Below, one piece after another: positions 5,062 through 57,256 of a stretch of DNA of 64,000 nucleotides. Where the stretch lies: IMG/VR virus record IMGVR_UViG_3300009068_000024, positions 62,001-126,000 of that record, one strand, 5' to 3'. Under the pieces are notes generated by a model. It made no database searches, was not told the DNA's origin, and saw only the letters and a program-made list of their open reading frames with translations. A program made the translations under genes and the position numbers. This DNA comes from a virus. The stretch's first letter is position 1; each line of letters opens with the position of its first letter.

Positions 5062-5265
5062 ATGGACGAAAATAAAAAGTCTAAGGCCGAGCCTATGCTT
5101 ACCGTAGAGTCTTATAGAAATGACGAGCACATCATTAAAGAAGTGCCGTACTCATCTCTTAGCATCGAGCAATTAGTCAATCTAGCTCTAGGTGGATCTA
5201 AAGCTGCCAATGAAGAACTGCAGCGTTTGGTTGGAGTAGACATCCTTAAGGGTGGCGAAGAGTAG
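5062..5265 (+). CDS. Small hypothetical protein upstream of the giant gene
   Basis: A 67-residue charged protein starting with ATG at 5062. The middle (SLSIEQLVNLALGGSKAANE) looks like an amphipathic helical hairpin. Its stop codon shares one base with the GTG of the giant gene (TAGTG), so the two are translationally coupled. No family recognised. The tight coupling suggests expression in fixed ratio to the giant protein. Confidence 0.65.
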   Translation: MDENKKSKAEPMLTVESYRNDEHIIKEVPYSSLSIEQLVNLALGGSKAANEELQRLVGVDILKGGEE

Positions 5266-11200: not shown

Positions 11201-14200
11201 TATTAATGATCCGGAAGTTTGGAAGAAAGCTGTAGAAGAAGCCAGAAAAATGTTGGCTAATGCAATAGCTGAAAACGGTGGAAATAATAACCCTTACACA
11301 TCCGAATACATTCCTTTAAAATCTTTGGATCAAATTCAAGCTGGCGACTATCTAATGTATGGTGGGCACTTCCCTCCAACTACTAGATGGAGGGGAACTA
11401 AAAGCGAAGAAACTAGTCCTAACTTCTATGCACAAGTTGTATCCGTTAAGACCGATGAAAACGGAAATAGAGTTTTTGAAATTAAAGAACCTAACCGTGC
11501 ACAGGGCGGGTATTACGATAATGTCTTTGTTAATGATGAAGAATTTTTAGATAAATTTGGTGGAATAACCGGCCTAGCTCGTTACTCTGACGAGAACTCA
11601 AACGTTAAGCCTGCTGCCGAACCTGTAGCCGAAGCTCAGGTAGAAGAAGAGCCTAAAGAACTTACCGAGGAAGAACGTCAGGCTAACCGAGATGCTTGGA
11701 CCGAGGCTGGAAAACTTTACAGAGAATATAAAGCTGCAAGCCGAGCAAAGAATAAAAAGCGTGAAGCTAAGCGCCTAAGACAAGAACTAGAGCAGTTCCC
11801 TGTTGTAGTGCTACACGAGAAACTTAGAGAACTTAGAGATATTCTAGACAACACTAGAAACTCTTCAACAGATGAAAATGAAAGAAAAGCGGCATCTAAG
11901 AGAGCCGCTGAAGTAACTGACGCTATGAAGCAGCTTAATGTACTTACTAACGAGGGTATGAAAGAGGGATCTGTAAAACCAACTGATCCTCTAAAGTTTA
12001 ACTTTGACGATCTTTTCAAAGAAGTAGAAGCACAGGATGGCATTTCTGAATCTGACGTTGAAGAAGCTGCAGAAGAGCCAGAAGTTGTAGAAGAACCAGC
12101 AGCCGAACCTACAGAAGAACCTAAGAAAAACGTCATTGAGACTGCTGGCGGAGTTCTAGATTTTGATGCTTTATCTCCAATGCAACTAGGAAAAATTAAA
12201 GCCCACCTTGACAAGAAAGTTCGCTGGAATGGCGAGGTAATGACCTACCATGAACTTTATAGCAGATTTGCTATCGGTAGACACAAGAGCCAAAACCTTA
12301 AAGATGTTGACTATGTAAAAGGTGAGTCAGTTAAGTCTTGGGGACCTATTAAGTATTTCCTTTTTGTAGATGAAAACGGTGGCATGATCGATGTTCCTAA
12401 GATGGTCTACGATGCTTTCAAGCCAAACAGCGATGATCCAAAATTGGATTCAGATGCCACTGCTCCAGTTCAAGAAGCTGAAATGGCTGAAAGACAAAGA
12501 AAGTGGGATGAGCAAGCTAAGGCAAAAGCAGAAGCTGAAGCTGCTAAACCTGCTGAAGAAAAGCCAGAGGAACCTGTTGAAGCTAAGCCGGAAGAGCCTG
12601 CTGCAGCTCCTGCAACTCCAGTAGAAACTCCTAAAGATCTTGGACCGGTTCAAATAACCAAAGATACAGCTAAGCAATATCTAGCCGAAAAGGTAGATGT
12701 TGGGTGGACTATCTATGGTCCAGATGGTTATGCTCTTGGAGTTGTAGTTAAGAAAGATACTCTAGGTAGAGTTGTTCAGCTAACCGTAAGAGGTCCTAAC
12801 GGGAAAGAAACTACATATAACTTCAACATGCTTACTAAGCTCAATGCCTTTAGTCCTAAAGACAAAAAAGATATCGAGAAAGCTAATAAGGCTAAGCCGG
12901 CTCAACCTAAGCCAGAACCTAAGCCAGAAGTTGTAGAAGAACCTACTTCAGAAGAAGCTCCAGATAAGATCTCCCGTGAAGACGGTTACAGACTGTTCAA
13001 TGCTGTTAAAGAAGTCTATGATTTCATCCACAGAATGAAAAGGACTGACGATCCCGACGCTGCAAAGAAAGATGCAAACGACAAGGTCAATCAGTTAGCA
13101 AAGATCTTAAATCCTGAAGATGTAGATGATTTTATTAGGTATGTAAATGCTATAAATAAAGAACCAGCACTTATAATGTCTAGCATAGATTATCAAAAGA
13201 ATTTTAGTGATTACTTAGACAAATATGCTTCAGGTCAGGGAGTTGCTAACAACCCTATCTACAGATCAGCTGACGGAAAAGAAATCAAAGAAGGTGATTT
13301 CTTGATGGTTGTAGGTGCAGATGGTGCTTTAAAGAAAATACAACTTAGAATCTTTAGAAGACCTAACCCTAGAGCACTCTCAGATAAGACAGACTTCATC
13401 GAGACAGGCTACTATCTTGAATTTTATAGGGATAAAGATCCTAGAATTGTAAGGATAGGTGACCCTAAAGAGTCATACTCACTAGATAAGGTATTCCACA
13501 GTCAAAATGAAGCTGAAATTAGAAATTTCATCCTCAATGGACGTAAGAGCGAGTCCACACCTGCAACTGCTGCTCCTATTGAATTCATACCTTCTTCAAA
13601 AATAAGAGGGCTTCAAGCTGGGGATCTTTTCTATATCTATGAAGCTGGCAACGGCTATGCCAAGCAATACATAGTTGGTTCTAATGGAGAGAGTGTATAT
13701 GAAGCAGTAAATGGGGAACTTCCAGGAGGGGCTGAAGAAAATGTTATAAGACCTGACGATCTAGACTCTATTGCAGAAAGAGTAGCTACCGGTAGTGGAG
13801 AAGAAGTTTACAGAGGACTTATCCCCACAGATGAAAATGGGAACCCTCTCTCAGCTAGGCAGCACAAAGCTAGACTTGAGTCGGCTGCTACTAGTGCTCC
13901 TGAGATTAAACCTGAAACTAAACCTGAGCCTGAAGCATCTAAGTCTTACAACAAAGACCTAGAAAATGATCTAGCTGTATTTAAAAATGTTCTAGAGAAT
14001 GCAATTGAAAACTTTAGAAACCAGCCTGGTGCAGACAAGAATATCTACAAAGCTGCAGCTAAAGAACTTTACAATGAACTTAAAAAGCTGAACTCACTTT
14101 ACGAAGATTCCACTACAAGTGGTGATGATCTAGAGCAAATTCGTAACGTTTATGACGATAAAATCCGTGATCTAGGCGACGTTCAATCAGCTAAAGAAAA

Positions 14201-17200
14201 GTCTAACCCTAGCCAAAACCGTGAGGGCGATCAAAGAAATATTACTCAAGATACCGATCAAGTTTCAATTGCAGCTATAGCAGATGCTTTAGCAAATGGC
14301 GATATTAATAATGTAAATTCTAATGAAGACCCGTCTGACATATTTGCATCAAAAACCAATTTCGGAGTAAGCATGTTGCTCAAGCAGGTAACAGCTATGA
14401 GACTTCTCAACTATATGCCAGATGCCAAGTTTGACGATCTACTCAAAGCTTCTATAGAAGTAGATACACATCCGTTGTTTAGACAAGGTGGCGGTCTAGC
14501 TATCTATTACATGGACTTTAATTCTGGACAAGCATCATATTCACCACTTCCAGGCCAAAGAAATCCTGTGTGGATATACAATGCCCTCAATGCAGATATG
14601 TCAGATATAAAAGAAGGAACAGAACTTCTAGTTACCGATGCTAATGGTAGCGATAGTCTTTCAAATGTATCAATAATTACTGTAAATAAAGAGCTTTTAA
14701 ATTCCGTTCTTAAAACAATGGGAGATACCAATTCAAACAGTATCGTGAGATTTATAAACGATGAGCTCTTCCTTAGAGTGCACTCAAGTTCTAGTCAAGA
14801 AGATGTTGACGATATAAAGAAGATAATGATATCTCACTTGATTCACAGCTGGGCAATATCTTCTAATGATAGAAGCCTAAAGTCTCATGCTTTGCAAAGT
14901 TTAGCTAGAGAAATATTTGCTATGGACTCTAATTCAACAGCTGGCTGGAATTTTACTTCAAATCTTGCTGATTCTGATCTTGATATGTATAGGGACAGAG
15001 GGTATATACCTTATGAAGTAAAAGATTTAGTAGATTTCAATAATTATCTAAAGGGATTTATTGATCAAGAAATTAACGATCACAGGACCGTTTATGCTCA
15101 GTTCTTACATGCAATGTACAATGCTACCCAGGATCTACTAAAGGATCAGGGAATAGATGGTTTCGTTCTATACAGAGGAACTACTTCCAAAGAACTTACT
15201 GAAACCTCTCAAAGTCTAGGATCTACTGGAATATTTAGATCTAATGTTAAGCAGAGACCGATGTCTTCATGGTCAACTGATATCTATCAGGCTGGTAGCT
15301 TTGCATCTAGAGCTTCTGGCAAAGATACAATAGTTATGGCTACAGTAATTCCGGCTGACAAAATTATTTCATTTTCCGGATCTGGATTTGGATCTTACGA
15401 CGAGCGTGAGGTTGTTGTTTTAGGTGGAGAGATTAGAGAAGCTTTTGCTATTAGTCATGGATACCCTGGAGTTGTAGATCAAAGTCTTCAAAATCTCAAG
15501 ACTGAGGTTGTGGATCAACTTGCAAATAGTAGAAAGGTTCTAGATACTGACCGAGCAAGTGGCCAGCAGGTAGTTCAGGAACAAAGCAAGCCGTCTCAAA
15601 ACAGAGAAAACACTATAAACATTGATGACAATGATGGAAACTCAGACTGGATTAAGACAGTAGGCTGGGACCTACCTATCAACGTTGATAATTTCTTAAA
15701 GATGTTTAATGACAGGGAGCATCTTTCAAACTTTATGTCTAAGCCTACTGCTGAAGGTATGCCTGAAGAAATGCTACGCAACCTATGGCCGGCTGCTGAC
15801 AAGTATTTTGACAAGATAGAGTCTGCTCCTAAAGAAGAAGAGCCTAAATACCTACCAGAGCCTTTTGATCCAAGAAACCCTCAAATCGATCTAGATGAGT
15901 ATTACAACTACGACTACACCAGAATGCCTGATGGAACTCCGTTTAACTCTGAAGATCAGCAGCAGATGGATGCGGTAGAGAGAAAATTAAAAAATATTCT
16001 TAAAGGTAGCGATGGCTATGTCAATCCATCTGCTCTAAAAAATACAAAGAACTTTAGAAGAACTATTTACCAGCAGATAATTGCTAAACCTAATGAAAAC
16101 TCTTCTACTACAAGAGAGAGCATTCTTAAGCAAATAGAGTTTAGCGATAAACCTGCTGTTGAGTACTACGATGAAACTAGCGGAGTTAACTACATTAGAT
16201 ATGTAGACACATTCACAGATAAATATGGAAGAAAATACTATCTATCAACTAATATTGATAAGAGTTCTGGTCGTCAAACTGTAATTGCTTACGATGCACA
16301 AAACTATGAAAACATGGCTCTTCCGGAAGACTACGTAAGAAATGATCAGCCTGTATCTGGAATTAGTGACGTTGGTGTGCTTAGAAGTTCTGTCTATGAA
16401 GATCCATCTAAATCTGAAATTCAAAGTGCGTTAGTCAGCTATAACTACCAAAGAAGAGGTCTAGCAACAGCTATGGTGGCTGCTCTAGAGAAGAGAATAG
16501 GTATGCCAGTAGTTCACTCGGAGCACCTGTCTACCATGGGATTTGCTTTCTCTAACAGCATCGACCCTGGCAAGCCTGAGCTACACAATAACGAGAAATC
16601 TATAAAACTACAGGAAGACAATGCTCCTTCTCAGAATCGTGAAGGATTCTTCAAGAGAAACAAAGCCAAGAAGGAACCTTTTGACCCTACAGATCCTACC
16701 GTTGATCTAGAAAAGTATTACAACTATGACTACACTAAGCTACCTGATGGCACCCCATTTAGTGTCTATCAGCAGCAGCAGATGGATATTCTTAAAGATG
16801 CAATTGACAACGAAACCGATAACTTTGAAAGAAAACTACGTATCGATGAGAGAAGACGCATCTATCAGGGATATACTGCTAAGCCAAACTTAAAGTCCGG
16901 CACTAATCTTGAAAGTATTGAAAACCAGGTGGGACTTCTAGATGAAAATACTTCTAGAATGAGCTATAGCGGTGCCGGTAAGCCTTACGCAGATCTTTCA
17001 CCAGAATACAAGCAGAGCACTCAGTATATTGATGAGTTCACTGATAAATATGGTAGACAGTATTGGGTAGTTACCAAGGTAGTAAACGGCCTCGGTATGT
17101 CAAACGTAAAGATCTACGATAAGAGTAAAAACTCAGTGCAGGATCTTCAAGATAATTCAGAGGATAGAACTCCTGTATCTATGCTAGATGTCTTTAATAA

Positions 17201-20200
17201 CAAAATTAGTATGGTTTACACCTCAGATAGATACCTAAGAAGAGGATTAGCTACTGCGGCCCTTTACCTAGCAAGAAAGCGTTCTGGAAAAGAAGTTCAG
17301 CATTCAGAAATGCTAACTAATTTTGGTAGAGCATTCTCCCTTTCAGTTGACCCTAACCCTGATCTTCACAGAAACAGTGAGTCAAAAGATGCCCTATCTA
17401 ACAACCAGCCTTCTCAGAACCGTGAAAGAGAATACCTGCCAGAACCTTTTGACCCTAGTGATCGTAAAATTGATATGGATATTATCTATAACTACGATTA
17501 CACTAAGCTACCTGATGGCACTCCATTCAACGATAAGCAACAAAAAGCAATGGATCACGAGAATAAAATTCTTGAAGAAGCTATAGCTTCCGGAGATGAA
17601 TCAAAAATACGTGCAGCTAAAATTTCTAGAAGACATACATATAATACATTTATAACTGTAGCTAACCCAGACTCCAAAACAAACACTGAAACTATAGCTG
17701 ATCAGATTACTTTAGGTAAATCTAAACCTAAAAAGTTCACCGGGTTTGTCCGTTACACAGATAATTTTACAGATAAATACGGTAGAAAATATGTGATGTT
17801 TACTGACATAAGAACCGATGATAAGGGAGATAATTCTGCAATTGTAACAGTGCATGATATGAAGAGTATGTTCCTTGAGAAAATTTTTGTTCCTGAGGGT
17901 ATGGAAAATGTTGATCAATTTGGAGGAAAAAGTCTCCACTCAGCTGCGTTAAAAGTTGTCGATGATAATAGAAAAGATCCAGATGCTGCTGCTTATATTG
18001 GTATGGTACTTACTGATGATGCGTATAGACGCCGCGGTCTTGCAACAGCAATGCTGTACTTAGCTCGTAAGCACTACAGTAAACCTGTTAACCACTCAAG
18101 CACTCTTACCATGTACGGTAAAGCTTTCTCTAACTCTGTGGATGCTGGAAAACCAGACGTGCACGATTCTTTAGAATCTAAGCAGCTACAGATTGATCTT
18201 CTTAAGGAGAAGGGTCTTCCTGTAGAAGAGTCTGAACTTGATGGCGATGAAATTGATTACGGGCCTAGCCAAAATAGAGAAGGTACTTCAGAACCATCTA
18301 TTCTTAATGAATATCGTGAAGTAATTCCTTTAAATAATTCCTATAGAGATAAGAATGACCCTAATTTAGACATTACTGAATGGACTGGCGAAGGTGTCAA
18401 AATATATGGAATAGGTAATGGCGGTAATCCACTGGGCTATGTAAAAACTGAAAAGCTTGCTACAATGAAAGGCAATCTTGCAGATATGGAGAGCAGTACA
18501 TCTTCTATAGCTCGGGATCTTGAAGACGGTACTGGCTATTTAGAGCCAGTACTAGTTTGGTACAACCCTCTTACTGGAAAAGCTTTTATTGCAGAGGGAA
18601 ATCACAGGGTTGAAGCTGCACGTATAGCTGGAAGAGAATATGTGCCTGTTGTAGTTGGCGTTAGCACTGTAAAGTTTAAAAATCCAACTAAAATGGAGAG
18701 AGCCGGGGGGGTTGGAGATGCATTTTTAAATAAGGATGGAAGTTTAGATAACTTTGAAAATGTTAAAGATGGATCTCTTATAAATCCATACCACTTATTT
18801 AATGATGAAGATCTTTTATATCCTAAAACTAATTTAGATTCAAGCAATGTTTCTGGACTTACAGATGTACTCAAAATACAATCAGATCTTTTAGATGAAC
18901 TTATGGCTGAAAAGAAAGAACCCGGACCTAATGATATTGTTTATTGGCACGATCCTGACAGTTTTAATGCCAATAGCTCGATTGGGCATATGGGACATGC
19001 TTCAGAAAAATTAAAAAGTATTACTGCTAAAAACATAAGTGAAAACATGCTGTCTTCCGCTAAAGATATGCTAGATGCGGTTCACTACGCCATAACACTT
19101 AGTGAAGCTGTACGTAATAGAATTGGTTCGATAACCTCAGATACCTCGGAAATAGCTAAAAAAGCTATGCAAACTAGAGTAGATAGTTTAAATAGAGATT
19201 CTATTGTACTAATAATAGATGACTCTTATGATTCTCCATATGAAGGATTACGTTTAGAAACTTTAGGGGAGATATTGGATAATGTGGATCCTCACGAGGA
19301 GGGGGCTTACGGAGATAAATATGATGATCAAAGTATTGATTACAAAGCTCTTTTAAATGATTATTACGACGATTGGGATAGAAAAACATTATTTTTTGAT
19401 AATCCAAAAGATATGGAAGCACTAAAAGAAAAGGTAGCTTCAATTCTTGTTTCACAGTGGGCAGAAACATCTAACGGTAATGATATGGTTTCTCACGCTC
19501 TTCAAATGGCTGCAACTGAAGTATTTAAAATGCCTAATGGATCGTGGGCGGAGTGGAGATTCCCTAAAGGTCAGTATGGGGATCAAATTAAAGAAAATGC
19601 GGAATATCATTATGGAATATACGGAACAGTACTTAAAGATTTCTTAAAAACTATGTACGACCTTACTCAGGATCGGTTTAAAAACTATGGAATAAAGTAT
19701 TTAACCCTTTACAGAGGTACTGGAGTAGATGAAGAAGCTTTAAAAATGAACATTGATGTTGAACGTTATGGTGTAGGAGATATTGAAGTATTGCAAAGAC
19801 CTATGTCATCATGGTCTTGGCTTAATGGCAGTGCTTTCCAGTTTGCTACTAGTAGAATAAAACATAGAGCAGGAATGTTTATGGGAGCTATAATTCCCGT
19901 TGATCAGGTTCTTTCTATTCCTGGAACTGGTTTTGGTTGTTTTGAAGAAGCTGAAGTAGTTCTACTAGCAGGAAAAAATAGACTAGTAAGAGCTGTAATT
20001 AGTGATGATTCTCATAAAGTACTTGACCAAAAAACTTTTATTGCTGAAAATGTGGATAAAATACTTTCTTACTTATCAGATGAACTTCCTAAAGATAAAA
20101 ATGCTTTTTACAATTTAATAGAGTTCAACAGCAGTTCTTTTAATGATTCTAAGCCTTCTCAAAACCGTGAAAACAAGTCGGTTGACATTGACAGTAGCAC

Positions 20201-23200
20201 AGAAAACTCTGACTGGATTAAACCTTTTAGATGGGATCTAACTACTAACGTAAAGAGCTTCCTAAATAAATTTAAGACCAAAAAAGATGTCAAAGACTTT
20301 ATGGAACTTCCAGCAGCCGAGGCTATTCCAGAAGATCTAAAGAAAGAGCTAGATGCCAAGGAATCAAGTCTTCCAGAAGATTCTTCAGAATCTGGTGAAA
20401 AAGATACACCGATTTCTCTACAAGAATTGCACAGAACATTTATTACTTCTATATTAATGGGAGCGGGGGATCAGAGAACTAGGCCTATCCCTGGGATTGG
20501 ACCTGAATGGCTACCGGCTAGCGTTAATGAGGATAAGTTAACTAACCTTGAAAGACTTTCCATACATATGTGGTATATGGATGTTATGACTAATGGAGGA
20601 GCTTCTAATGCAACTCTCACCTCTAAAGCAGCTGATTATCTGACTAAATATGTTATCCCTCTTATTGATAGACATAAAGAAGAGTTTATGCTTCTCCCTA
20701 ACCATGACATTTATATCAACAAAGACAATAATGCCGCTATTAAAGTTCTTAGATTTATAACTAATCCAACTAAGAAAAATGGAAAAACTAACGTAAATAC
20801 TGACTATAGGGCAGCCTCTGCTGCTGGAGTAGCTAAATTTGCAAATAAACTTTCAAAAGTTTTAGCTAAAACAAGATTTAAATTCCCTGTCAAAGAACTT
20901 CAGGTAATAATTACTCACCCTAATATTGAAGATTTCTTTAAGAGAATAGATAATGGTGATGGAACTCATAGGCAAAGATTAGCTGGAATAGCTTTCCCTA
21001 ACCTCTTTATTCATGGTCAGATTTTAAACGAAGACGATAAAGCTCCTAGTCGTAAACTTACCGAAAACCCTAGACCGGATGCTACCGATTTAGAGGCCAC
21101 CATTGCTCACGAAATAGGTCATATTCTCCACCAAAAAGGTATCATCAATACAGCTGATCCAGCTACAAAAGACACTATTCGTAGATTTATGAATGAATAC
21201 CCTCTAACCGATTATGCAAATACAGACGAAGACGAGTATTTAGCTGAGGCATATGCTGGAATGATGTTGTCTGAAGATGGCATTGGCCGATACAAAGAAG
21301 TTGCTGATTGGATTAATAACCAGATCGACACTGTTGATGAAAGAAAAGAAAAAGCTGCTATAGATCTTCTTAAGACTATGCTAGATAAACTTGGTATTCC
21401 AGGTAGCAGCAAGCCTAGCCAAAATAGGGAAGGTTCTAGAGAACAGATTATTGCGTCTGCTGCAAAAGACATTGCTTCTAGCGGAATAGGTTTTGTGCCT
21501 GGAAAAGTTAAAAATGATATAAGCATAGCAACTGACGGTCCTGTAATAAATATCGAAGGATCTCCTAAAAAAGATGCAGTAGCTCCATCTGATCAGGCTA
21601 CCGCTATTAAAAATGAAATAATCGATCTAGGACATATGATTCTAGATGATGCTAGAGCTATTTCAGATGAGCAAGCTAGATCTGAAGGTCTTATCCCTGA
21701 AGGATTTACTGCTGAAGAATATAGAAAAAAACTAAAGAATGATGCTAGAACTGCAGAACTAAATATACTTATAGCAGAAAGTAAGTTTAAGGCTATGTCT
21801 CAGGATCTTATGAGAAATGCTTTTAATAGACTTTCTTACGAAGATAAAGAAGAGGTTTTCCAAAGCTTCAAAAAAGAAAATTCTAAAAATAGCATATTGT
21901 CAGGTAAAGATAAAAATACTTTTGATGCAGAAGAAACTTTTAATATGCTTCTAGTCGAGTATGGTGATGATCTTTCTCATAAGCTTGCTTACGATTACAG
22001 TACTCGATATCCAGAGTTTACTTTTGATACCGGTAAAACTGTACTACAAAGAACTAGAAACAGGAGCGGAAAACTAACTAAAGAAGTAGAAGAAAGAAAG
22101 ACTTTAGTAGACGTTACTTGGGCACATGAGGGACCTGACACTATTCTAAGTATGCTTACCAAGTGGGCAATTCAAACAGGCAAAATTGACATGTCAGATT
22201 TTGCTCAAAAAGCAGCTGAGATAAAAGAGCTAAGAGATCAGCTCAGAACTTCTCCAAAAGCAGAAGATTTTGTAGAAAAGTATCACTCTATAATTGGTAA
22301 AAATATTAAATCTCAGATGGAAAAAGCGGGAGTTGAATTTGACTCGGTGCCTGCACATGAGTTTTTTAATCAGTATAAGGACTACAAATATGTTAATAGT
22401 AATGAAAAATTCCAGGATATTAGAATAGATAGAAATAAGAACCTTATTAAAAATCTAGAAGAAACTCTTAGTTTTATTCCTAAAGATATTATTCTAGCTG
22501 GAATGGAATATCTAGCTAATACTGGTGGAAAACTTGGGGTTCAAATTTCCGACGCACGTGCGCAATTTAAACAGCACTGGAAAAATAAAAATTTAATAAA
22601 TTCATTGAGATGGAAAAAAGAGCAGGGAGATGGAGGATTCTTCCGTGGGAGATCAACTGACGACTACCTACACGAAGTTTGGCATTTCTTCCAGATGATC
22701 AACCATGATATTGCAGCTTTAGAGCACGCTTTCTCTTATGACAGAATTAAAGCATCTGACAACACTAATATCATTCCGTCAATGGAACTTTATGGAAATT
22801 GGGTAGAAGAATCCTTCTCCGGGGCAAAGGTGGCAGATCCTTATACTGTGAAGGTATATCCTCGTTCAACCAGTAAGTTTACTACCTTCAGTCCGAACAA
22901 CCACAGTGCCGAAGTTATAACTACTACAATGCAGGATCTATTTACTTCTCCTGGTAGCTTCTCTACTCCTAAGGGAGTTACGGTTAAAACTGGAAAAGGC
23001 AAAAATACTACGTTGTTTAGCGATGCTCATATGGATATAGCTACTGGCATTTGGTATACTGATGCCACCATGACAACTAAAATTGACCCTAAGCTGATCA
23101 CTGGAATTGAAGGACTAGATCCTTCGAATGACACTGACTGGGATCTAAAAGCTTTTGGAATCGGTCTACTGATGTCGCTATTGAACTGGGAGAATAAGTA

Positions 23201-23201
23201 A
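5265..23201 (+). CDS. Giant 5,978-aa polyvalent protein with PSQNRE-separated enzymatic modules
   Basis: A single uninterrupted frame of 17.9 kb starting at GTG, roughly 660 kDa. Domain order by residue: FRDKYGRW motif (35-41), a small beta-barrel-like unit (185-232), DnaQ-like exonuclease (about 310-525), zincin with HELGH (868), Ala-Pro and Gly-rich linkers (about 1168-1215), two tandem 347-residue-period modules (about 1532-2103), a charged coiled-coil region (about 2125-2250), more beta-barrel-like units, ADP-ribosyltransferase 1 (about 3270-3400), three GNAT-like modules (about 3530-4305), ParB-like domain (about 4370-4470), ADP-ribosyltransferase 2 (about 4780-4910), zincin with HEIGH (5282) and a C-terminal part with HEVWH (5803). 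The composition matches the polyvalent protein class described in phages and conjugative elements, proposed to be delivered with DNA to counter host defences. Ten PSQNRE-type motifs divide it. It lies between the helicase/ArdC gene and the head protease, in the virion-gene block. Confidence 0.9.
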   Translation: MDFEYLKPIVADGSGDGDGEYTSAERRADVATQFRDKYGRWVEMGRGIKGKIRLGKRRGSDAGRTARIVGKFINATPDGKYARVLVDPSDPYFAGKVAYIRYDNAEEVLATLDPEYLKKRGIELGKNTEGYEVGDGGIQDEDTLRIEDPTPQDLKDAEADLPDPGDYREEAAKRTATALTGKDLAVGNIVYDQGADQYGKITQVRTLADGTKQIFIQFQNGRRAIMNIAADHPIQAWLGEEEAKPTPEVTPSQSREGSSIADLGIDLQPATMDANGARLPTPGAFTGVLQRILGGAKNWADVAKRLLNQTITYFDFETTGISNYDGDGIKNSPIQLGAVKVKNGKIIGRFNVYINPGSKLSEWSADNLKRDVIDENGNVVLDENGKPVTIPVTAEWLSEQMSPEEALRQFLEFIGPNAILGGQNVPFDLEILQRMADDAGIELKIAGTVDSKDLASLLPTYDPEKGIDGPKQIADKETGRMRPSSSLGPVANFLGFEPANWHSADGDAEDSYNLVREIIARAARENNPDMRLLDFPEMQRLYKERMAAFKNSISSNNPVTEAQLNALNELANSDNQEIATEARKAINEATTRGKAAEVLARLNNAKDRPNNNPSQFRIGGGGDVGDGNGIPNKKELAILERLKYFLKKKFTKKPKQYIPVGYDRIDNWGMYPQWYKDVYESAGNLDDFVKLFWKALRESYKGTRLEDPEGRTDINETEYAVAAAIYKNLQGIGEKVILRYGEFTIEFDKQSDINGQLLDELKPYLDTARKLGLKLPVRIKIAKQGDPAFTEGEVIGFDKNNPDIGVLTGEAHTEPDGTMHMILWDQLHNMEKLDERRLFKGLNEQGQEEYYGQNPGGFIPALQYVFFHELGHLWNREKHGRQVNSPVWGELKKMFWGTDAKPFKRFDVTPNSGKDFDERMAELFMAAVVAFHNKEGGVLPNIGQFWKVAIEPYIHGEPINWTANSTRINPPKKEEKGKGKKTTTEETRTPRGGKARTPDVKKPEDVKPGDILYDKDGNLHGKVIRISKDRNGNWHYWVEGKDYKPGDVFPTGLDEYVIHKNGVAYLTKAGANFVPDEGPDFVYPLPEKLDSSNADGVKAEDLKPGMVYDSPDGPANVVNVIEHGIGVPDVKKSSDRVVVYVGKDGEVKHEVVPVGTFKKVLTSSKSNVPAPAPAPAPAPAPENENQGGEGNGNGSDRGGEGSGGGGGGRGGNAPEPVSEEPEVKPEAAPETESKPESEVTREDPVGKGKIDPKGYAEKGYVPMVHPKPEFPAETDEKKLIEKGFEIEEQDNRGEPSQNREEEEEGEEGALPTEDTSDFGAGKKVVILWHNKDFSAPGARIKITFTRKADGSLDKRFTQIQWKNWDGTISGDEYGPSEVLNIGDSESEIFRMEFKHTVGILARRNEEYNDGELPGTVPHFFRKVGDDYIWRAVKDPKTGKWKAARDQKIDLVKKPPFGAIISNKDGKWTATILDPKGNTVATFEVDGDENDKSALENLINQSYVELAKRYRNINAPATAPAPAARPAGKATDEHSFPLPDDVKMWKIRDGRMTEYLMGYEEGVDEFGKHYIKIPKDSRFAAILQYIESLGHWYVGLADVNSSLDRERGIKEALSISDSSKVVKGDIDDPKVWEEALKEARKLISDAIANRDGKNVRYGYEHRSIESLDDIRVNDYIIFRTSYPPSINYADTDRPEEYISGIIGKVLSIGKDKEGNRTFKIQGKDGKIKNLTDKKLDYVGGAVRFSDDDPNINVSTTEIVKKRLAKREMRELRFSIEMDIDKDPNKSEDSLEKIYKAVEDKIGPDLSEDHIFVQGLQKALSKKMYDKSNTKAYLTEEEIYEIVDNFIKEYSTEKKSKATPVQPVEEKEAIPTTSPAGLVGEHNHPLPEDVQMFPAGVGEPYAKYVINGEGFQHESDYPDVRVKDGLRYGVEIYYEEAIEPNSYNKKGRVAGWRISLLNNKWREDMSRRRLIDYRNAEVPGDINDPEVWKKAVEEARKMLANAIAENGGNNNPYTSEYIPLKSLDQIQAGDYLMYGGHFPPTTRWRGTKSEETSPNFYAQVVSVKTDENGNRVFEIKEPNRAQGGYYDNVFVNDEEFLDKFGGITGLARYSDENSNVKPAAEPVAEAQVEEEPKELTEEERQANRDAWTEAGKLYREYKAASRAKNKKREAKRLRQELEQFPVVVLHEKLRELRDILDNTRNSSTDENERKAASKRAAEVTDAMKQLNVLTNEGMKEGSVKPTDPLKFNFDDLFKEVEAQDGISESDVEEAAEEPEVVEEPAAEPTEEPKKNVIETAGGVLDFDALSPMQLGKIKAHLDKKVRWNGEVMTYHELYSRFAIGRHKSQNLKDVDYVKGESVKSWGPIKYFLFVDENGGMIDVPKMVYDAFKPNSDDPKLDSDATAPVQEAEMAERQRKWDEQAKAKAEAEAAKPAEEKPEEPVEAKPEEPAAAPATPVETPKDLGPVQITKDTAKQYLAEKVDVGWTIYGPDGYALGVVVKKDTLGRVVQLTVRGPNGKETTYNFNMLTKLNAFSPKDKKDIEKANKAKPAQPKPEPKPEVVEEPTSEEAPDKISREDGYRLFNAVKEVYDFIHRMKRTDDPDAAKKDANDKVNQLAKILNPEDVDDFIRYVNAINKEPALIMSSIDYQKNFSDYLDKYASGQGVANNPIYRSADGKEIKEGDFLMVVGADGALKKIQLRIFRRPNPRALSDKTDFIETGYYLEFYRDKDPRIVRIGDPKESYSLDKVFHSQNEAEIRNFILNGRKSESTPATAAPIEFIPSSKIRGLQAGDLFYIYEAGNGYAKQYIVGSNGESVYEAVNGELPGGAEENVIRPDDLDSIAERVATGSGEEVYRGLIPTDENGNPLSARQHKARLESAATSAPEIKPETKPEPEASKSYNKDLENDLAVFKNVLENAIENFRNQPGADKNIYKAAAKELYNELKKLNSLYEDSTTSGDDLEQIRNVYDDKIRDLGDVQSAKEKSNPSQNREGDQRNITQDTDQVSIAAIADALANGDINNVNSNEDPSDIFASKTNFGVSMLLKQVTAMRLLNYMPDAKFDDLLKASIEVDTHPLFRQGGGLAIYYMDFNSGQASYSPLPGQRNPVWIYNALNADMSDIKEGTELLVTDANGSDSLSNVSIITVNKELLNSVLKTMGDTNSNSIVRFINDELFLRVHSSSSQEDVDDIKKIMISHLIHSWAISSNDRSLKSHALQSLAREIFAMDSNSTAGWNFTSNLADSDLDMYRDRGYIPYEVKDLVDFNNYLKGFIDQEINDHRTVYAQFLHAMYNATQDLLKDQGIDGFVLYRGTTSKELTETSQSLGSTGIFRSNVKQRPMSSWSTDIYQAGSFASRASGKDTIVMATVIPADKIISFSGSGFGSYDEREVVVLGGEIREAFAISHGYPGVVDQSLQNLKTEVVDQLANSRKVLDTDRASGQQVVQEQSKPSQNRENTINIDDNDGNSDWIKTVGWDLPINVDNFLKMFNDREHLSNFMSKPTAEGMPEEMLRNLWPAADKYFDKIESAPKEEEPKYLPEPFDPRNPQIDLDEYYNYDYTRMPDGTPFNSEDQQQMDAVERKLKNILKGSDGYVNPSALKNTKNFRRTIYQQIIAKPNENSSTTRESILKQIEFSDKPAVEYYDETSGVNYIRYVDTFTDKYGRKYYLSTNIDKSSGRQTVIAYDAQNYENMALPEDYVRNDQPVSGISDVGVLRSSVYEDPSKSEIQSALVSYNYQRRGLATAMVAALEKRIGMPVVHSEHLSTMGFAFSNSIDPGKPELHNNEKSIKLQEDNAPSQNREGFFKRNKAKKEPFDPTDPTVDLEKYYNYDYTKLPDGTPFSVYQQQQMDILKDAIDNETDNFERKLRIDERRRIYQGYTAKPNLKSGTNLESIENQVGLLDENTSRMSYSGAGKPYADLSPEYKQSTQYIDEFTDKYGRQYWVVTKVVNGLGMSNVKIYDKSKNSVQDLQDNSEDRTPVSMLDVFNNKISMVYTSDRYLRRGLATAALYLARKRSGKEVQHSEMLTNFGRAFSLSVDPNPDLHRNSESKDALSNNQPSQNREREYLPEPFDPSDRKIDMDIIYNYDYTKLPDGTPFNDKQQKAMDHENKILEEAIASGDESKIRAAKISRRHTYNTFITVANPDSKTNTETIADQITLGKSKPKKFTGFVRYTDNFTDKYGRKYVMFTDIRTDDKGDNSAIVTVHDMKSMFLEKIFVPEGMENVDQFGGKSLHSAALKVVDDNRKDPDAAAYIGMVLTDDAYRRRGLATAMLYLARKHYSKPVNHSSTLTMYGKAFSNSVDAGKPDVHDSLESKQLQIDLLKEKGLPVEESELDGDEIDYGPSQNREGTSEPSILNEYREVIPLNNSYRDKNDPNLDITEWTGEGVKIYGIGNGGNPLGYVKTEKLATMKGNLADMESSTSSIARDLEDGTGYLEPVLVWYNPLTGKAFIAEGNHRVEAARIAGREYVPVVVGVSTVKFKNPTKMERAGGVGDAFLNKDGSLDNFENVKDGSLINPYHLFNDEDLLYPKTNLDSSNVSGLTDVLKIQSDLLDELMAEKKEPGPNDIVYWHDPDSFNANSSIGHMGHASEKLKSITAKNISENMLSSAKDMLDAVHYAITLSEAVRNRIGSITSDTSEIAKKAMQTRVDSLNRDSIVLIIDDSYDSPYEGLRLETLGEILDNVDPHEEGAYGDKYDDQSIDYKALLNDYYDDWDRKTLFFDNPKDMEALKEKVASILVSQWAETSNGNDMVSHALQMAATEVFKMPNGSWAEWRFPKGQYGDQIKENAEYHYGIYGTVLKDFLKTMYDLTQDRFKNYGIKYLTLYRGTGVDEEALKMNIDVERYGVGDIEVLQRPMSSWSWLNGSAFQFATSRIKHRAGMFMGAIIPVDQVLSIPGTGFGCFEEAEVVLLAGKNRLVRAVISDDSHKVLDQKTFIAENVDKILSYLSDELPKDKNAFYNLIEFNSSSFNDSKPSQNRENKSVDIDSSTENSDWIKPFRWDLTTNVKSFLNKFKTKKDVKDFMELPAAEAIPEDLKKELDAKESSLPEDSSESGEKDTPISLQELHRTFITSILMGAGDQRTRPIPGIGPEWLPASVNEDKLTNLERLSIHMWYMDVMTNGGASNATLTSKAADYLTKYVIPLIDRHKEEFMLLPNHDIYINKDNNAAIKVLRFITNPTKKNGKTNVNTDYRAASAAGVAKFANKLSKVLAKTRFKFPVKELQVIITHPNIEDFFKRIDNGDGTHRQRLAGIAFPNLFIHGQILNEDDKAPSRKLTENPRPDATDLEATIAHEIGHILHQKGIINTADPATKDTIRRFMNEYPLTDYANTDEDEYLAEAYAGMMLSEDGIGRYKEVADWINNQIDTVDERKEKAAIDLLKTMLDKLGIPGSSKPSQNREGSREQIIASAAKDIASSGIGFVPGKVKNDISIATDGPVINIEGSPKKDAVAPSDQATAIKNEIIDLGHMILDDARAISDEQARSEGLIPEGFTAEEYRKKLKNDARTAELNILIAESKFKAMSQDLMRNAFNRLSYEDKEEVFQSFKKENSKNSILSGKDKNTFDAEETFNMLLVEYGDDLSHKLAYDYSTRYPEFTFDTGKTVLQRTRNRSGKLTKEVEERKTLVDVTWAHEGPDTILSMLTKWAIQTGKIDMSDFAQKAAEIKELRDQLRTSPKAEDFVEKYHSIIGKNIKSQMEKAGVEFDSVPAHEFFNQYKDYKYVNSNEKFQDIRIDRNKNLIKNLEETLSFIPKDIILAGMEYLANTGGKLGVQISDARAQFKQHWKNKNLINSLRWKKEQGDGGFFRGRSTDDYLHEVWHFFQMINHDIAALEHAFSYDRIKASDNTNIIPSMELYGNWVEESFSGAKVADPYTVKVYPRSTSKFTTFSPNNHSAEVITTTMQDLFTSPGSFSTPKGVTVKTGKGKNTTLFSDAHMDIATGIWYTDATMTTKIDPKLITGIEGLDPSNDTDWDLKAFGIGLLMSLLNWENK
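6195..6830 (+). other. DnaQ-like DEDDh 3'-5' exonuclease domain of the giant protein
   Basis: Exo I is visible as YFDFETTG near 6204, with the metal-binding Asp and Glu. NVPFDLEIL near 6535 corresponds to Exo II, and HSADGDAEDSYN near 6770 to Exo III, with the His and final Asp of the DEDDh class. The family removes nucleotides from DNA or RNA 3' ends. The domain fills most of the interval between the motifs at 6015 and 7101. All catalytic positions appear intact. Confidence 0.8.
7650..8160 (+). other. Zincin metallopeptidase domain 1 (HELGH)
   Basis: HELGH at 7866..7880 gives the two zinc-binding His residues and the catalytic Glu. A downstream FDERMAELFMAA helix near 8010 may provide the third ligand, as in related phage zincins. 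The domain lies alone between the separators at 7101 and 9147. The substrate is unknown. Confidence 0.7.
9858..11570 (+). repeat. Tandem duplication of a ~200-residue module (347-residue period)
   Basis: Unit A (9858..10480) and unit B (10899..11570) share the same order of blocks: H-x-x-PLP-[DE]-DV-[KQ]-M at the start, then DPxVW with a conserved EAxKxLxxAIA helix, then a basic/aromatic segment leading to a G/N-DYxx strand and a final V-[LV]-S-[IV]-K strand. Proline/glutamate linkers flank them. Function is not recognised; the ends resemble small beta-barrels. Confidence 0.7.
15080..15480 (+). other. ADP-ribosyltransferase domain 1
   Basis: LYRGT near 15168 supplies the conserved Arg of the R-S-E class, PMSSWSTD near 15258 the central Ser motif, and YDEREVVVL near 15396 the E-x-E catalytic turn. 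This pattern fits arginine-directed mono-ADP-ribosyltransferases such as the phage T4 Alt/Mod group, which modify host proteins early in infection. The domain lies between the separators at 14208 and 15591. All key residues are present. Confidence 0.75.
15633..15785 (+). repeat. DWIK module, copy 1
   Basis: About 50 residues starting NSDWIKTVGWDL directly after the separator that follows ADP-ribosyltransferase 1, ending in a PEEMLRNLWP helix. A close copy (NSDWIKPFRWDL, ending PEDLKKELD) follows ADP-ribosyltransferase 2 at 20205..20350. The pairing suggests the transferase and this module were duplicated together. Function unknown. Confidence 0.7.
15853..18180 (+). repeat. Three tandem GNAT-like acetyltransferase modules
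   Basis: Modules at about 15853..16610, 16672..17395 and 17445..18180 share EPFDP near the start, YNYDYT-[RK]-[ML]-PDGTPF, F-T-DKYGR, a [QR]RRGLATA segment and a final H-S-x-x-L-x-x-x-G-x-AFS block. RRGLATA matches the R/Q-x-x-G-x-G/A acetyl-CoA loop of GNAT enzymes. The separators at 15591, 16626, 17409 and 18264 bracket each module. The modules have diverged strongly, so the triplication is not recent. Assignment to GNAT rests on this loop and its context only. Confidence 0.65.
18370..18680 (+). other. ParB-like nuclease-fold domain
   Basis: EPVLVWYNPLTGKAFIAEG near 18546 leads into GNHRVEAARIAGR near 18600, the ParB/sulfiredoxin-fold signature (G-x-HR-x-x-AA). Phage members of this fold occur in polyvalent proteins, where nuclease or nucleotide-binding roles are proposed. 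It shares an inter-separator segment with ADP-ribosyltransferase 2. Confidence 0.65.
19600..19990 (+). other. ADP-ribosyltransferase domain 2
   Basis: LYRGTG near 19706, PMSSWSW near 19800 and FEEAEVVLLAG near 19940 repeat the R-S-E pattern of the first transferase, with E-A-E as the catalytic turn. The two domains are only moderately similar, so they may have different targets. Followed by the separator at 20154 and the second DWIK module. Confidence 0.7.
20205..20350 (+). repeat. DWIK module, copy 2
   Basis: Second copy of the NSDWIK module, placed directly after the separator that follows ADP-ribosyltransferase 2, as copy 1 is placed after transferase 1. Confidence 0.7.
20990..21390 (+). 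other. Zincin metallopeptidase domain 2 (HEIGH)
   Basis: AHEIGHILHQKG has the zincin motif at 21108..21122, and EYLAEAYAGM near 21237 offers the third ligand Glu. This arrangement matches the phage zincins found with ADP-ribosyltransferase and MuF modules. It lies between the separators at 20154 and 21414. Confidence 0.7.
22600..23190 (+). other. C-terminal module with HEVWH, possible third zincin
   Basis: LHEVWHFFQ places an H-E-x-x-H at 22671..22685, within the final segment after the last separator. No glycine or obvious third ligand follows in the usual pattern, so metallopeptidase activity is only possible. The tail of the domain is Thr/Ser-rich and ends with a hydrophobic FGIGLLMSLLNW helix. 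Confidence 0.35.
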
Positions 23202-52635: not shown

Positions 52636-53196
52636 ATGACCGAATTTATCGGAATATCTGGATTTGCTAGATCTGGAAAAGATACTGCTGCTGATTATTT
52701 AGTAAAAAACCATGGATTTACAAGAATATCTTTTGCCGACCCGATGAGAGAAGCACTACTTGCATTAGACCCTAGTGTATCTTTTGGAATCTCTTCTATA
52801 AAAATATCTACTCTAGTTAGGCTAGGTGGGTGGGATACGGTAAAAGAAGATTATCCAGAAGTTAGAGAACTTTTACAACGGATGGGTACAGAAGTTGGTC
52901 GTAATCTTTTTGGAAAAGATTTTTGGGTAGACCAGGCTTTTAAAAAAGCTGAGCAATATGACAAAGTTGTATTTTCAGATTGTAGGTTTATCAATGAAGC
53001 CGATGCCGTGACAGCTCATGGCGGGTCTGTGTGGCGTATCAACAGAGCCGGACTTCTTGCTCCAAATAATCACGTGTCTGAAAAAGAACTGAATGATTAC
53101 AACTTCAATGTGATCTTTAACAATGACGGTACCCTAGAAGATTTTTATAATAATATTGAAAGACACTTGGAGATTAAATGTCTGATCAAGGAATAG
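52636..53196 (+). CDS. Deoxynucleoside monophosphate kinase
   Basis: ATG after ATAGGAG; 186 residues. GISGFARSGKDTAADYL is a P-loop with the form used by T4 gp1-type dNMP kinases, followed by FADPMREALLALD, LLQRMGTEVGR and VFSDCRFINEADA, the usual order for the family. The enzyme phosphorylates dNMPs to dNDPs for DNA synthesis in the host cytoplasm. Length agrees with the family. Its 3' end overlaps the recombinase gene by 19 bases. Confidence 0.85.
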   Translation: MTEFIGISGFARSGKDTAADYLVKNHGFTRISFADPMREALLALDPSVSFGISSIKISTLVRLGGWDTVKEDYPEVRELLQRMGTEVGRNLFGKDFWVDQAFKKAEQYDKVVFSDCRFINEADAVTAHGGSVWRINRAGLLAPNNHVSEKELNDYNFNVIFNNDGTLEDFYNNIERHLEIKCLIKE

Positions 53197-53834
53197 CTCT
53201 TTTGTATGCTCGTGTATCTACTCAACTGCAGGTAAGTGACGGAGTTTCATTAGATGTTCAGGAACGTCAACTACGTCAAGCAGCTGAGTTGGCTGGGTAT
53301 ACAGAGTTTGAACTTATCCGTGAAGAGGGTCGCTCAGGTAAGTCAATTACGGGCCGTCCGGCTCTTACAGCCGCTTTGAAGCGTTTAGATACTGGCACTG
53401 CTTCAGCCCTGTTTGTGACGCGTATCGACCGCCTAGCCCGCTCTACGAAGGACTTTTTGAGCATAATAGACCGGGCAAATGCCAATAAATGGCGTCTAGT
53501 TATGCTAGATCTAAACCTGGACACAGCCAGCTATCAGGGCCGTTTTGTGGTTACGATTATGTCTGCTCTGGCTGAGATGGAACGTGGCATTATCGCTGAG
53601 CGTCAAAAAGATGTGCATAAAGATCGTCGAGCTCGTGGAATTAAGTGGGGGGTTGATATGGGCCCTAAAAATAAAACTTCTGATGAAGTAAAGGATCTCG
53701 TTAGAAAGCAGAAAGATTCCGGTCTTTCATTCCACGAAATAGCTAGAAGATTAAACAATAATGGCGTACCAACCCAGAATGGAGGGAGATGGTACGCCAC
53801 TACAGTTAAAAATATTTACGATTCTTTAGATTAA
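53178..53834 (+). CDS. Serine recombinase, resolvase type with short C-terminal helix-turn-helix domain
   Basis: ATG at 53178 within the kinase gene; 218 residues. YARVSTQ carries the nucleophilic Ser, followed by FVTRIDRLAR and the MSALAEMERGIIAERQ helix that forms the dimer arm. The C-terminal 70 residues end with the short LSFHEIARRLNNNGVPT and GRWYATTVKNI segments of recombinase DNA-binding domains, without the Zn ribbon and coiled coil of large serine integrases. It therefore suits resolution or inversion better than integration. By eye its codons are more G+C-rich than its neighbours, a hint of recent transfer. No crossover site is obvious nearby. Confidence 0.85.
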   Translation: MSDQGIALLYARVSTQLQVSDGVSLDVQERQLRQAAELAGYTEFELIREEGRSGKSITGRPALTAALKRLDTGTASALFVTRIDRLARSTKDFLSIIDRANANKWRLVMLDLNLDTASYQGRFVVTIMSALAEMERGIIAERQKDVHKDRRARGIKWGVDMGPKNKTSDEVKDLVRKQKDSGLSFHEIARRLNNNGVPTQNGGRWYATTVKNIYDSLD

Positions 53835-54655: not shown

Positions 54656-56278
54656 TTAATGGGCTAGGCGAACTGCGACATTCCAATCAATTTCTTTGGA
54701 TTCTACAGCTCTTGGAGCAAGAGTTCTATTTTTAATTTCAGCTTTAGAGCCTTGACCTAGAATTTGTAACCCTCTATCTGAAAGTTTTCTGTGAAACGCA
54801 ATTTGAGTTAGTGGACGTTCACCACGTTCATCCGACCACATTCTATAAATTGAATACATCTGCTTGACTAAAACTGAAGCTCCCTCATTTTCACGAGTCT
54901 CTTCATTCAAGAACATCCCAATTCGGTCTTCATTCTTACGATAGATCTCAGCTGCCTCAGAAACGGCTGTACACCACCCTAGAGGGTCTCTAGCAGACGA
55001 TCCTAGGTATTTTATGGCTCCCTCTACTGCCCAAGCCAAAACAGCCGGTAAACCGCCCTCAGGGTCGAATAGATAAGCTTTTAGATCTGGATCTGGCATT
55101 TCAGGAACATTGCTCCATGGAATAGGTCTAATACGACGCCACATAGCATCGTCATTAATCATAGGACGGTGGTTAGTTGTAATCCATAATTTGGCTTGAG
55201 CCTTAAATGTAAATGGCTTTTCACCTGGAGAACGAGCAGAAATTTCAGATGAACCAGTTAACTTTTTAACAGCATTTTCTTTTAGACGTTCTGATTCTGG
55301 AAGCTCGTCTACCCAGACCATTCGACGACCTCTAAGTTCAGCCCAGTGGTACATATCTGTACTACTTGAGCTAGCACCAGTATCAGCAAGAATGCTGGAG
55401 TCAAGTGGCCAGGCATATTGCTGAGTACCTAGAGCCTTAACGATTGCTTCAACAAACGTGTTTTTACCCGATCCCGGGGGACCATAAACAAGGAACATTA
55501 AATCTTGATTGTTCAAACCAGTCAGTGTATAGCCAACTGCACGTTGAATCCAGTCTTGTAGTTCTCTATCCCCGCCAGTAGCAAAGTCGATAAACTGCTC
55601 CCAACGCATATTACGCATTCCTGGGGTGTAAGACAAGGGGATACGCTTTGTGATATGTAGATCTGGTCTACCTTTCATAAGCTCTCCGGTTTTAAGATTG
55701 ATTACACCATTAAGCACACCAAGAAGATATTCATCTCCATCCCAAGATTCAACTGCAGTAATTACTCGACTATCTGAATTAGCACTTTCAATAGCTGCAT
55801 TTAATCTGCTATTTGATCTAACCTGATTGGCCCACTTGATAACTTCGCTACGCTTATCTTCATCTGGATAATTGACTACTTCAGTGGTAATAATTGTTGG
55901 TAAGTGCTTTGCCAGTTCTTTCATTCCAAGATCTTCAGCATCTGGTTTCCAATACTGACCATCCCAAATAAACCAACCAATGCCGGGAGTGTATCTAACT
56001 GACGATCCAAATGAATCTACTAATCGACGTCCATTACCGATGTCAGATAGAGATCGGTTTCCTGGCTTTCCACCCTCGGCTTCCGAAATAGCGTCGACGT
56101 TTTTAGGGACATCAACGTTTCCACTACTAAATGCATCCGAAATTGATACACCATTATGAGCTGCCTCTGAGATAGAATGACCTACAGTTCCAACCTGAGA
56201 CTGTGCTGTTGGGCTAGGGTCTGATTCAGTTTTAGGTTTAGCTGATCTAGATTCTTCTTGAGACCTGTTTGCCCAGTC
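54656..56278 (-). CDS. D5-type primase-helicase C-terminal half, without a recognisable start codon
   Basis: The frame is open for 541 codons from the TAA at 56279..56281. SF3 helicase signatures are clear: Walker A YGPPGSGKNT, Walker B VWVDELPESERL, sensor LWITTNHRP and the basic DDAMWRRIRPIPW. The N-terminal part before the first ATG at 55924 (GNGRRLVDSFGSSVRYTP and GWFIWDGQYWKPDA) is a well-formed D5 N-terminal domain, so it is coding. There is no ATG, GTG or TTG in those 118 codons. The protein is therefore made either by reading through the TAA from the prim-pol gene, or from 55924 without that domain, or the TAA is an error or mutation. It unwinds DNA at the replication fork. Confidence 0.75.
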   Translation of the reverse strand, partial: DWANRSQEESRSAKPKTESDPSPTAQSQVGTVGHSISEAAHNGVSISDAFSSGNVDVPKNVDAISEAEGGKPGNRSLSDIGNGRRLVDSFGSSVRYTPGIGWFIWDGQYWKPDAEDLGMKELAKHLPTIITTEVVNYPDEDKRSEVIKWANQVRSNSRLNAAIESANSDSRVITAVESWDGDEYLLGVLNGVINLKTGELMKGRPDLHITKRIPLSYTPGMRNMRWEQFIDFATGGDRELQDWIQRAVGYTLTGLNNQDLMFLVYGPPGSGKNTFVEAIVKALGTQQYAWPLDSSILADTGASSSSTDMYHWAELRGRRMVWVDELPESERLKENAVKKLTGSSEISARSPGEKPFTFKAQAKLWITTNHRPMINDDAMWRRIRPIPWSNVPEMPDPDLKAYLFDPEGGLPAVLAWAVEGAIKYLGSSARDPLGWCTAVSEAAEIYRKNEDRIGMFLNEETRENEGASVLVKQMYSIYRMWSDERGERPLTQIAFHRKLSDRGLQILGQGSKAEIKNRTLAPRAVESKEIDWNVAVRLAH

Positions 56279-56281
56279 TTA
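56279..56281 (-). other. In-frame TAA stop between prim-pol and helicase domains
   Basis: The prim-pol gene ends KLWPGL-TAA and the same frame continues DWANRSQEESRSA into the helicase. In many actinophages the two halves form one chain of about 850 residues, the same length as here (866 codons plus stop). Confidence 0.85.
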
Positions 56282-57256
56282 TAGTCCAGGCCAAAGTTTT
56301 TCTGTAATTGGATTTTCAGCAACAAAGTCCATGGCACGGCGGACGTGCATAAGAAGAGAGTTAACACCCTCCAATTCCATTGGCGGACGTACTTTTTCGT
56401 AGTTGAATCGGATCATCAAAGTCTCGATCATCAAACGCTTTTCAGGAGTCTCTACTCCATACTTGTTTGATAGTGCACATGCAAGCTTGTAGATATCTAC
56501 AGCACGTGATCCTTCATCAATTCCTTCTTCAAGAATTTTTGCAATATCAACCCGATCACCTTTATAGTCAAGGTCACCCATCCAACTCCAGTCACCATCA
56601 GCGTGGGACGATCCAGACTTGCGATTCTTTTTACGAATAACCTCTAGTAAAGCTTCCGGGGCATCTGCCATTTCAATTTCCCATGGGGCATGTCCTGGCT
56701 TCCATTCATAGTTGACTCCAGATCCATGGCGGCTAGGTGCAAGCATCACATACCCATTGTGCTTGATGTCAATACCATTTAAACCGCTAGCTTTTAAATT
56801 ACCTACAAACTGTTCTGAATTATCTACTTTAAAAAATAAGTGACGTCCACGTTCAGCTTTACCGTTATATGTATATCTTCCAGTAAGTGCTTCTACAGTG
56901 TTTGGTAATGCACCATCTAAAAGTTCATCTAGTTTTTCAAATGATTCAATACCACCGGATCTAGGGTCAATATCAATGACTATAAATCCAGATGGTTGGC
57001 AAAACACACCAATGTTGTTGATAGGGGAAGTGCTCCACCAGTTATGAATAACTAGCTGATCATCGGTAGCACGTGCGTTCCACTCACCGATGGCTGGGTG
57101 CTTACCTACATCTTTAGGTTCACCGTGAATACCGTTGCAAGTACAGCGACCTCCGTCATCAATACCGTGGCAAGGTAGGATCTTCCAGCCTTGTTGGGCA
57201 TACCAGACGGATGCTTTAGATAATTTCTCAATGTGAGTAGATTCAGGTTGAGTCAT
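56279..57256 (-). CDS. Prim-pol (bifunctional primase-polymerase domain) protein
   Basis: ATG at 57256; 325 residues. GFIVIDIDPRSGG contains the catalytic D-x-D and GRHLFFKV the conserved His of archaeal/eukaryal-type prim-pol domains. A Cys-rich stretch near residue 35 (GGRCTCNGIHG) precedes it. The C-terminal 90 residues are helical and match the linker before D5 helicases. It primes DNA synthesis and functions with the helicase encoded in the same frame downstream. Transcription starts in the divergent region 57257..57468. Confidence 0.85.
   Translation of the reverse strand: MTQPESTHIEKLSKASVWYAQQGWKILPCHGIDDGGRCTCNGIHGEPKDVGKHPAIGEWNARATDDQLVIHNWWSTSPINNIGVFCQPSGFIVIDIDPRSGGIESFEKLDELLDGALPNTVEALTGRYTYNGKAERGRHLFFKVDNSEQFVGNLKASGLNGIDIKHNGYVMLAPSRHGSGVNYEWKPGHAPWEIEMADAPEALLEVIRKKNRKSGSSHADGDWSWMGDLDYKGDRVDIAKILEEGIDEGSRAVDIYKLACALSNKYGVETPEKRLMIETLMIRFNYEKVRPPMELEGVNSLLMHVRRAMDFVAENPITEKLWPGL

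What the first reader, a model, noticed from the sequence alone, without database searches (positions are those of the whole stretch)
56279..56281. TAA stop in the middle of a primase-helicase with no restart codon
Seen: prim-pol and D5 helicase lie in one frame, interrupted only by TAA. The 118 codons after it, including a clearly coding D5 N-terminal domain, have no ATG, GTG or TTG. Other genes here end normally on TAA, so whole-genome recoding is excluded. Possibilities: programmed readthrough giving two products in ratio, a host suppressor, initiation at 55924 with loss of a domain, a recent mutation, or a sequencing error.
Basis: seen in the sequence. Interest (0 to 1): 0.7.

Follow-up and report, generated by a model that had tools for sequence, protein, structure and literature searches.

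The report
One-off stop in phage primase-helicase gene
The stop codon in the middle of this freshwater phage's primase-helicase gene is a single-letter change seen only in this one record, while relatives have an unbroken gene, so it is an ordinary recent mutation or a sequencing error and not a regulatory device.

Summary
On the minus strand, 57256..54656 is one frame (Prim-Pol, linker, D5-type helicase) broken only by TAA at 56281..56279; the next ATG/GTG/TTG is at 55924, 118 codons on. Relatives settle what it is. None of 45 related contigs that cover the place has a stop there, nor has one further contig found by pattern, the metagenome-assembled phage DSL-LC01 or the isolated Microbacterium phage A3Wally. 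All nine contigs sharing the local DNA have a glutamine codon, so the TAA is one C-to-T transition, one of only three bases private to this record in the gene. Six of the eight closest intact relatives have the same start-free stretch, so it is unrelated to the stop. Codons after the stop still show strong purifying selection (24 synonymous, 3 nonsynonymous differences to the nearest full-length relative). Nothing supports recoding, suppression or programmed readthrough: TAA ends 64 of 103 longer ORFs, the record has no suppressor tRNA, the RNA after the stop folds no better than shuffles, and no other conserved gene is interrupted. Verdict: an isolated nonsense substitution, either recent or an error in the metagenome consensus; reads would be needed to tell which. 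Interest is low.

The parts
56279..57256 (-). Prim-Pol half of the primase-helicase gene (325 codons), ending on the in-frame TAA
   Evidence: ORF; PF09250 E 2.1e-33; phrog_1156 DNA primase
56279..56281 (-). TAA where the closest relatives have a glutamine codon; the position is a variable linker residue (Q, E, S, T, A, N or G) across the family
55925..56278 (-). 118 codons of linker and first 35 residues of the D5_N match, in frame, without ATG, GTG or TTG; same in most close intact relatives
54656..56278 (-). D5-type helicase half of the same gene (D5_N, DUF5906 with Walker A GPPGSGKN, Pox_D5-like C-terminus)
54656..55924 (-). Mechanical ORF from the first ATG after the stop (422 aa); not likely to be a gene of its own

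Best explanation
The gene is an ordinary one-ORF Prim-Pol/D5 primase-helicase (866 codons in its close relatives) of a freshwater actinobacteriophage group. In this one metagenome-assembled record a single C-to-T transition turns a glutamine codon in the variable linker into TAA. It is either a recent nonsense mutation in the sampled phage or population, which would leave the helicase half unexpressed in that genome, or an error in the consensus (read, PCR or assembly). Shown: no other record found has the stop; it is one base, recent, and the only interruption of a conserved gene. Inferred: that it has no function. Not decidable here: mutation or error; I put them at roughly even odds.
For: None of 45 related viral contigs covering the place has a stop there, and those with both gene ends present keep one open frame of 844-926 codons; the one exception, L040, has a separate upstream deletion. 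All nine contigs with the same local DNA have CAA. Six relatives searched as whole records have the full 868-912 codon frame with no stop inside, and a seventh truncated contig has none in the part it holds. Phage DSL-LC01 and the isolate A3Wally have it annotated as one CDS. Only three private bases in 2,601; syn:nonsyn codon differences after the stop are 24:3 against L002 and 38:3 against L003. No other conserved gene of the record is broken in comparison with five related records, apart from differences that come from piece ends, start choice or divergent tail genes.
Against: Nothing directly. No reads were available, so the base itself is not verified. The tools warn that records very near the window's own may be left out of the scans, so another record with the same TAA could exist unseen.
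Confidence: 0.95

Rival explanations
1. Programmed readthrough of TAA makes a short Prim-Pol and a long primase-helicase in a set ratio.
For: The frame stays open and conserved after the stop, but this is equally expected of a fresh mutation.
Against: No relative has the stop, including one at 97.9% DNA identity. No structured RNA follows it (z-score 0.24; no Rfam match). From general knowledge, TAA is usually the least leaky bacterial stop.
Confidence: 0.015
2. The stop is read as glutamine through a suppressor tRNA or a recoded genetic code.
For: The codon stands where relatives have glutamine, as in phages that recode TAG (PMC9523058, PMC10607447).
Against: The whole 137.5-kb record has one tRNA-Met and a tmRNA and no suppressor. 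TAA is the commonest terminator, 64 of 103 ORFs. Only one gene is affected, whereas a recoded phage has many (41 ORFs in phAss-1, PMC10607447 abstract).
Confidence: 0.01
3. The gene is truly split in this lineage: Prim-Pol alone, and a shortened helicase starting at the ATG at 55924 or at a non-standard start.
For: The ATG at codon 445 exists and the Walker A motif lies after it.
Against: That start removes 35 residues of the D5_N match. No relative is split. The codons between stop and ATG are still conserved against L002 and L003.
Confidence: 0.02

Closest known systems
Prim-Pol/D5 primase-helicase of phages (phrog_1156 DNA primase; Pfam PF09250 + PF08706)
   Same: Domain order, length of the joined frame and sequence; relatives carry it as one intact gene
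   Different: This record has a TAA in the linker
Microbacterium phage A3Wally gene 104 (MZ150783) and Actinomycetia phage DSL-LC01 primase/helicase (OQ999401)
   Same: About 61-65% identical helicase half, same gene
   Different: Single annotated CDS without interruption
Stop-codon-recoding phages (crAss-like, code 15; PMC9523058, PMC10607447)
   Same: A stop where relatives have glutamine
   Different: One gene only, TAA and not TAG, no suppressor tRNA, and TAA is used as normal terminator

Membership tests
Prim-Pol/D5 primase-helicase (phrog_1156) | Prim-Pol domain followed by D5_N and helicase domain | tested here: met
   when both halves of the frame are taken
Prim-Pol/D5 primase-helicase (phrog_1156) | Uninterrupted single ORF | tested here: not met
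   TAA at 56281..56279 in this record; intact in all relatives examined that hold the whole gene, except L040. A broken copy of the family's gene.
Programmed stop-codon readthrough | Stop conserved among relatives | tested here: not met
   none of 45 covering loci, nor the other records looked at
Programmed stop-codon readthrough | Stimulating RNA structure after the stop | tested here: not met
   z-score 0.24 over 102 nt
Programmed stop-codon readthrough | Extended protein detected | not testable with these tools
   no proteomics
Stop-recoded phage | Suppressor tRNA in the genome | tested here: not met
   (ARAGORN on the 137.5-kb record, in pieces)
Stop-recoded phage | In-frame stops of one kind in many conserved genes, and that codon avoided as terminator | tested here: not met

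The most novel reading that the evidence does not exclude
A low level of TAA readthrough, or a host ochre suppressor, keeps the helicase half expressed in this one lineage, so the stop is tolerated as a new two-product arrangement.
Probability: 0.02. Interest if true: 0.45.

Novelty: not a real feature. Interest (0 to 1): 0.05.

Why it matters
It matters only as a caution: single in-frame stops in metagenome-assembled phage records should be checked against relatives before readthrough or recoding is proposed. If the TAA were real and fixed, it would mark a population of helicase-defective phages living by complementation, but nothing points to that.

Tried and rejected
Whole-genome recoding: rejected by stop usage and by the lack of other interrupted genes. 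Phage-encoded suppressor tRNA: none. RNA signal after the stop: no structure beyond chance and no Rfam match. A naturally split gene in the family: none found; the only other interrupted copy, L040, has a roughly 200-bp out-of-frame deletion in the Prim-Pol half where L037 is otherwise identical in the stretch compared, a different and equally isolated event. The tblastn list of interrupted ORFs also holds many short or antisense ORFs; I judged these spurious because the longest-ORF comparison leaves only this gene unexplained by piece ends, start choice or tail-gene divergence.

Full report
What is there. The window is bases 62001-126000 of a 137,503-base virus record. On the minus strand, 57256..54656 is a single frame of 866 codons before its final stop, interrupted once by TAA at 56281..56279. 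The first 325 codons are a Prim-Pol protein (PF09250, E 2.1e-33). The 540 after the stop are the D5-type helicase part (D5_N PF08706, E 9.7e-26; DUF5906; Pox_D5). Both halves hit the same PHROG, phrog_1156 DNA primase.

Relatives. A scan of IMG/VR with the helicase half gave 51 loci. In 45 of them the corresponding place could be read, and none has a stop there. Those whose contig holds the whole gene have a continuous frame of 844-926 codons, except L040. L040 is open at this place but has a roughly 200-bp out-of-frame deletion in the Prim-Pol half relative to L037, with which it is otherwise identical over the stretch compared. An exact-pattern scan allowing either base at the first codon position, plus two silent variants, found nine contigs (eight of them already among the 45), all with CAA. 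Whole-record searches confirm complete open frames in six relatives and no stop in the part held by a truncated seventh. The metagenome-assembled phage DSL-LC01 from Dishui Lake (PMC10611076) and the isolate Microbacterium phage A3Wally have the gene as one CDS. Across the family the residue at this place varies (Q, E, S, T, A, N, G), as expected of a linker.

Age of the change. Against eight close relatives (84-98% DNA identity) the gene of this record has only three private bases: the stop, one silent and one Lys/Arg change. Codon differences after the stop are 24 silent to 3 replacing against L002 and 38 to 3 against L003. The helicase half has thus been under selection as protein until very recently, as expected of a fresh mutation or an error.

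The missing restart codon. Six of eight close intact relatives have the same start-free stretch and two have one start each, while more distant relatives often have several. The intact gene needs no internal start, so the stretch is chance plus shared descent. The estimate of 0.012 from codon frequency is not evidence for a device.

Other mechanisms. The 137.5-kb record encodes one tRNA-Met and a tmRNA and no suppressor. Of 103 non-overlapping ORFs of 90 aa or more, 64 end on TAA, 26 on TAG and 13 on TGA. Comparison with five related records shows no other conserved gene interrupted, after setting aside piece ends (the gene crossing the window's right edge and the one crossing two fetched stretches), start choice and divergent tail genes. 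The 102 nt from the stop fold no better than shuffles (z 0.24). Recoded phages show many interrupted genes and the cited ones use TAG (PMC10607447, PMC9523058; abstracts), which is not the picture here.

Verdict. An isolated C-to-T nonsense substitution in an ordinary phage primase-helicase gene, recent or artefactual. If real, the genome would make the Prim-Pol half only and would depend on complementation, leak or reversion for its helicase (inference). Without reads, mutation and error cannot be separated. The scans may leave out records very near the window's own, so a second TAA-bearing record from the same water cannot be excluded.

Noticed in passing
L062:7811-8349 (record bases 7811-8349, outside the window): The phage carries a tRNA-Met (cat) and a tmRNA gene (tag ANTSAYALAA). 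The relative G001 (135,096 bases) has the same pair with the same tag, and G008 (135,069 bases) a tmRNA with tag AESRSAFALAA. A phage-borne tmRNA kept in this group.
   Followed up: partly
window 5265..23201 (+): One ORF of 5,978 codons (6,251 in relative G001); only an RNase_T exonuclease piece and a GNAT acetyltransferase piece match Pfam. A giant phage protein of unclear role.
   Followed up: partly
window 53178..53834 (+): A gene that reads by eye as a serine recombinase family protein (YARVST motif) lies close to the primase-helicase; DSL-LC01 also has a recombinase gene next to its primase-helicase.
   Followed up: no
L040 upstream of 4315: A roughly 200-bp out-of-frame deletion in the Prim-Pol half, with a 2-base overlap at the join, in a contig otherwise identical to L037 over the stretch compared; another isolated defect or assembly error in the same gene.
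   Followed up: partly
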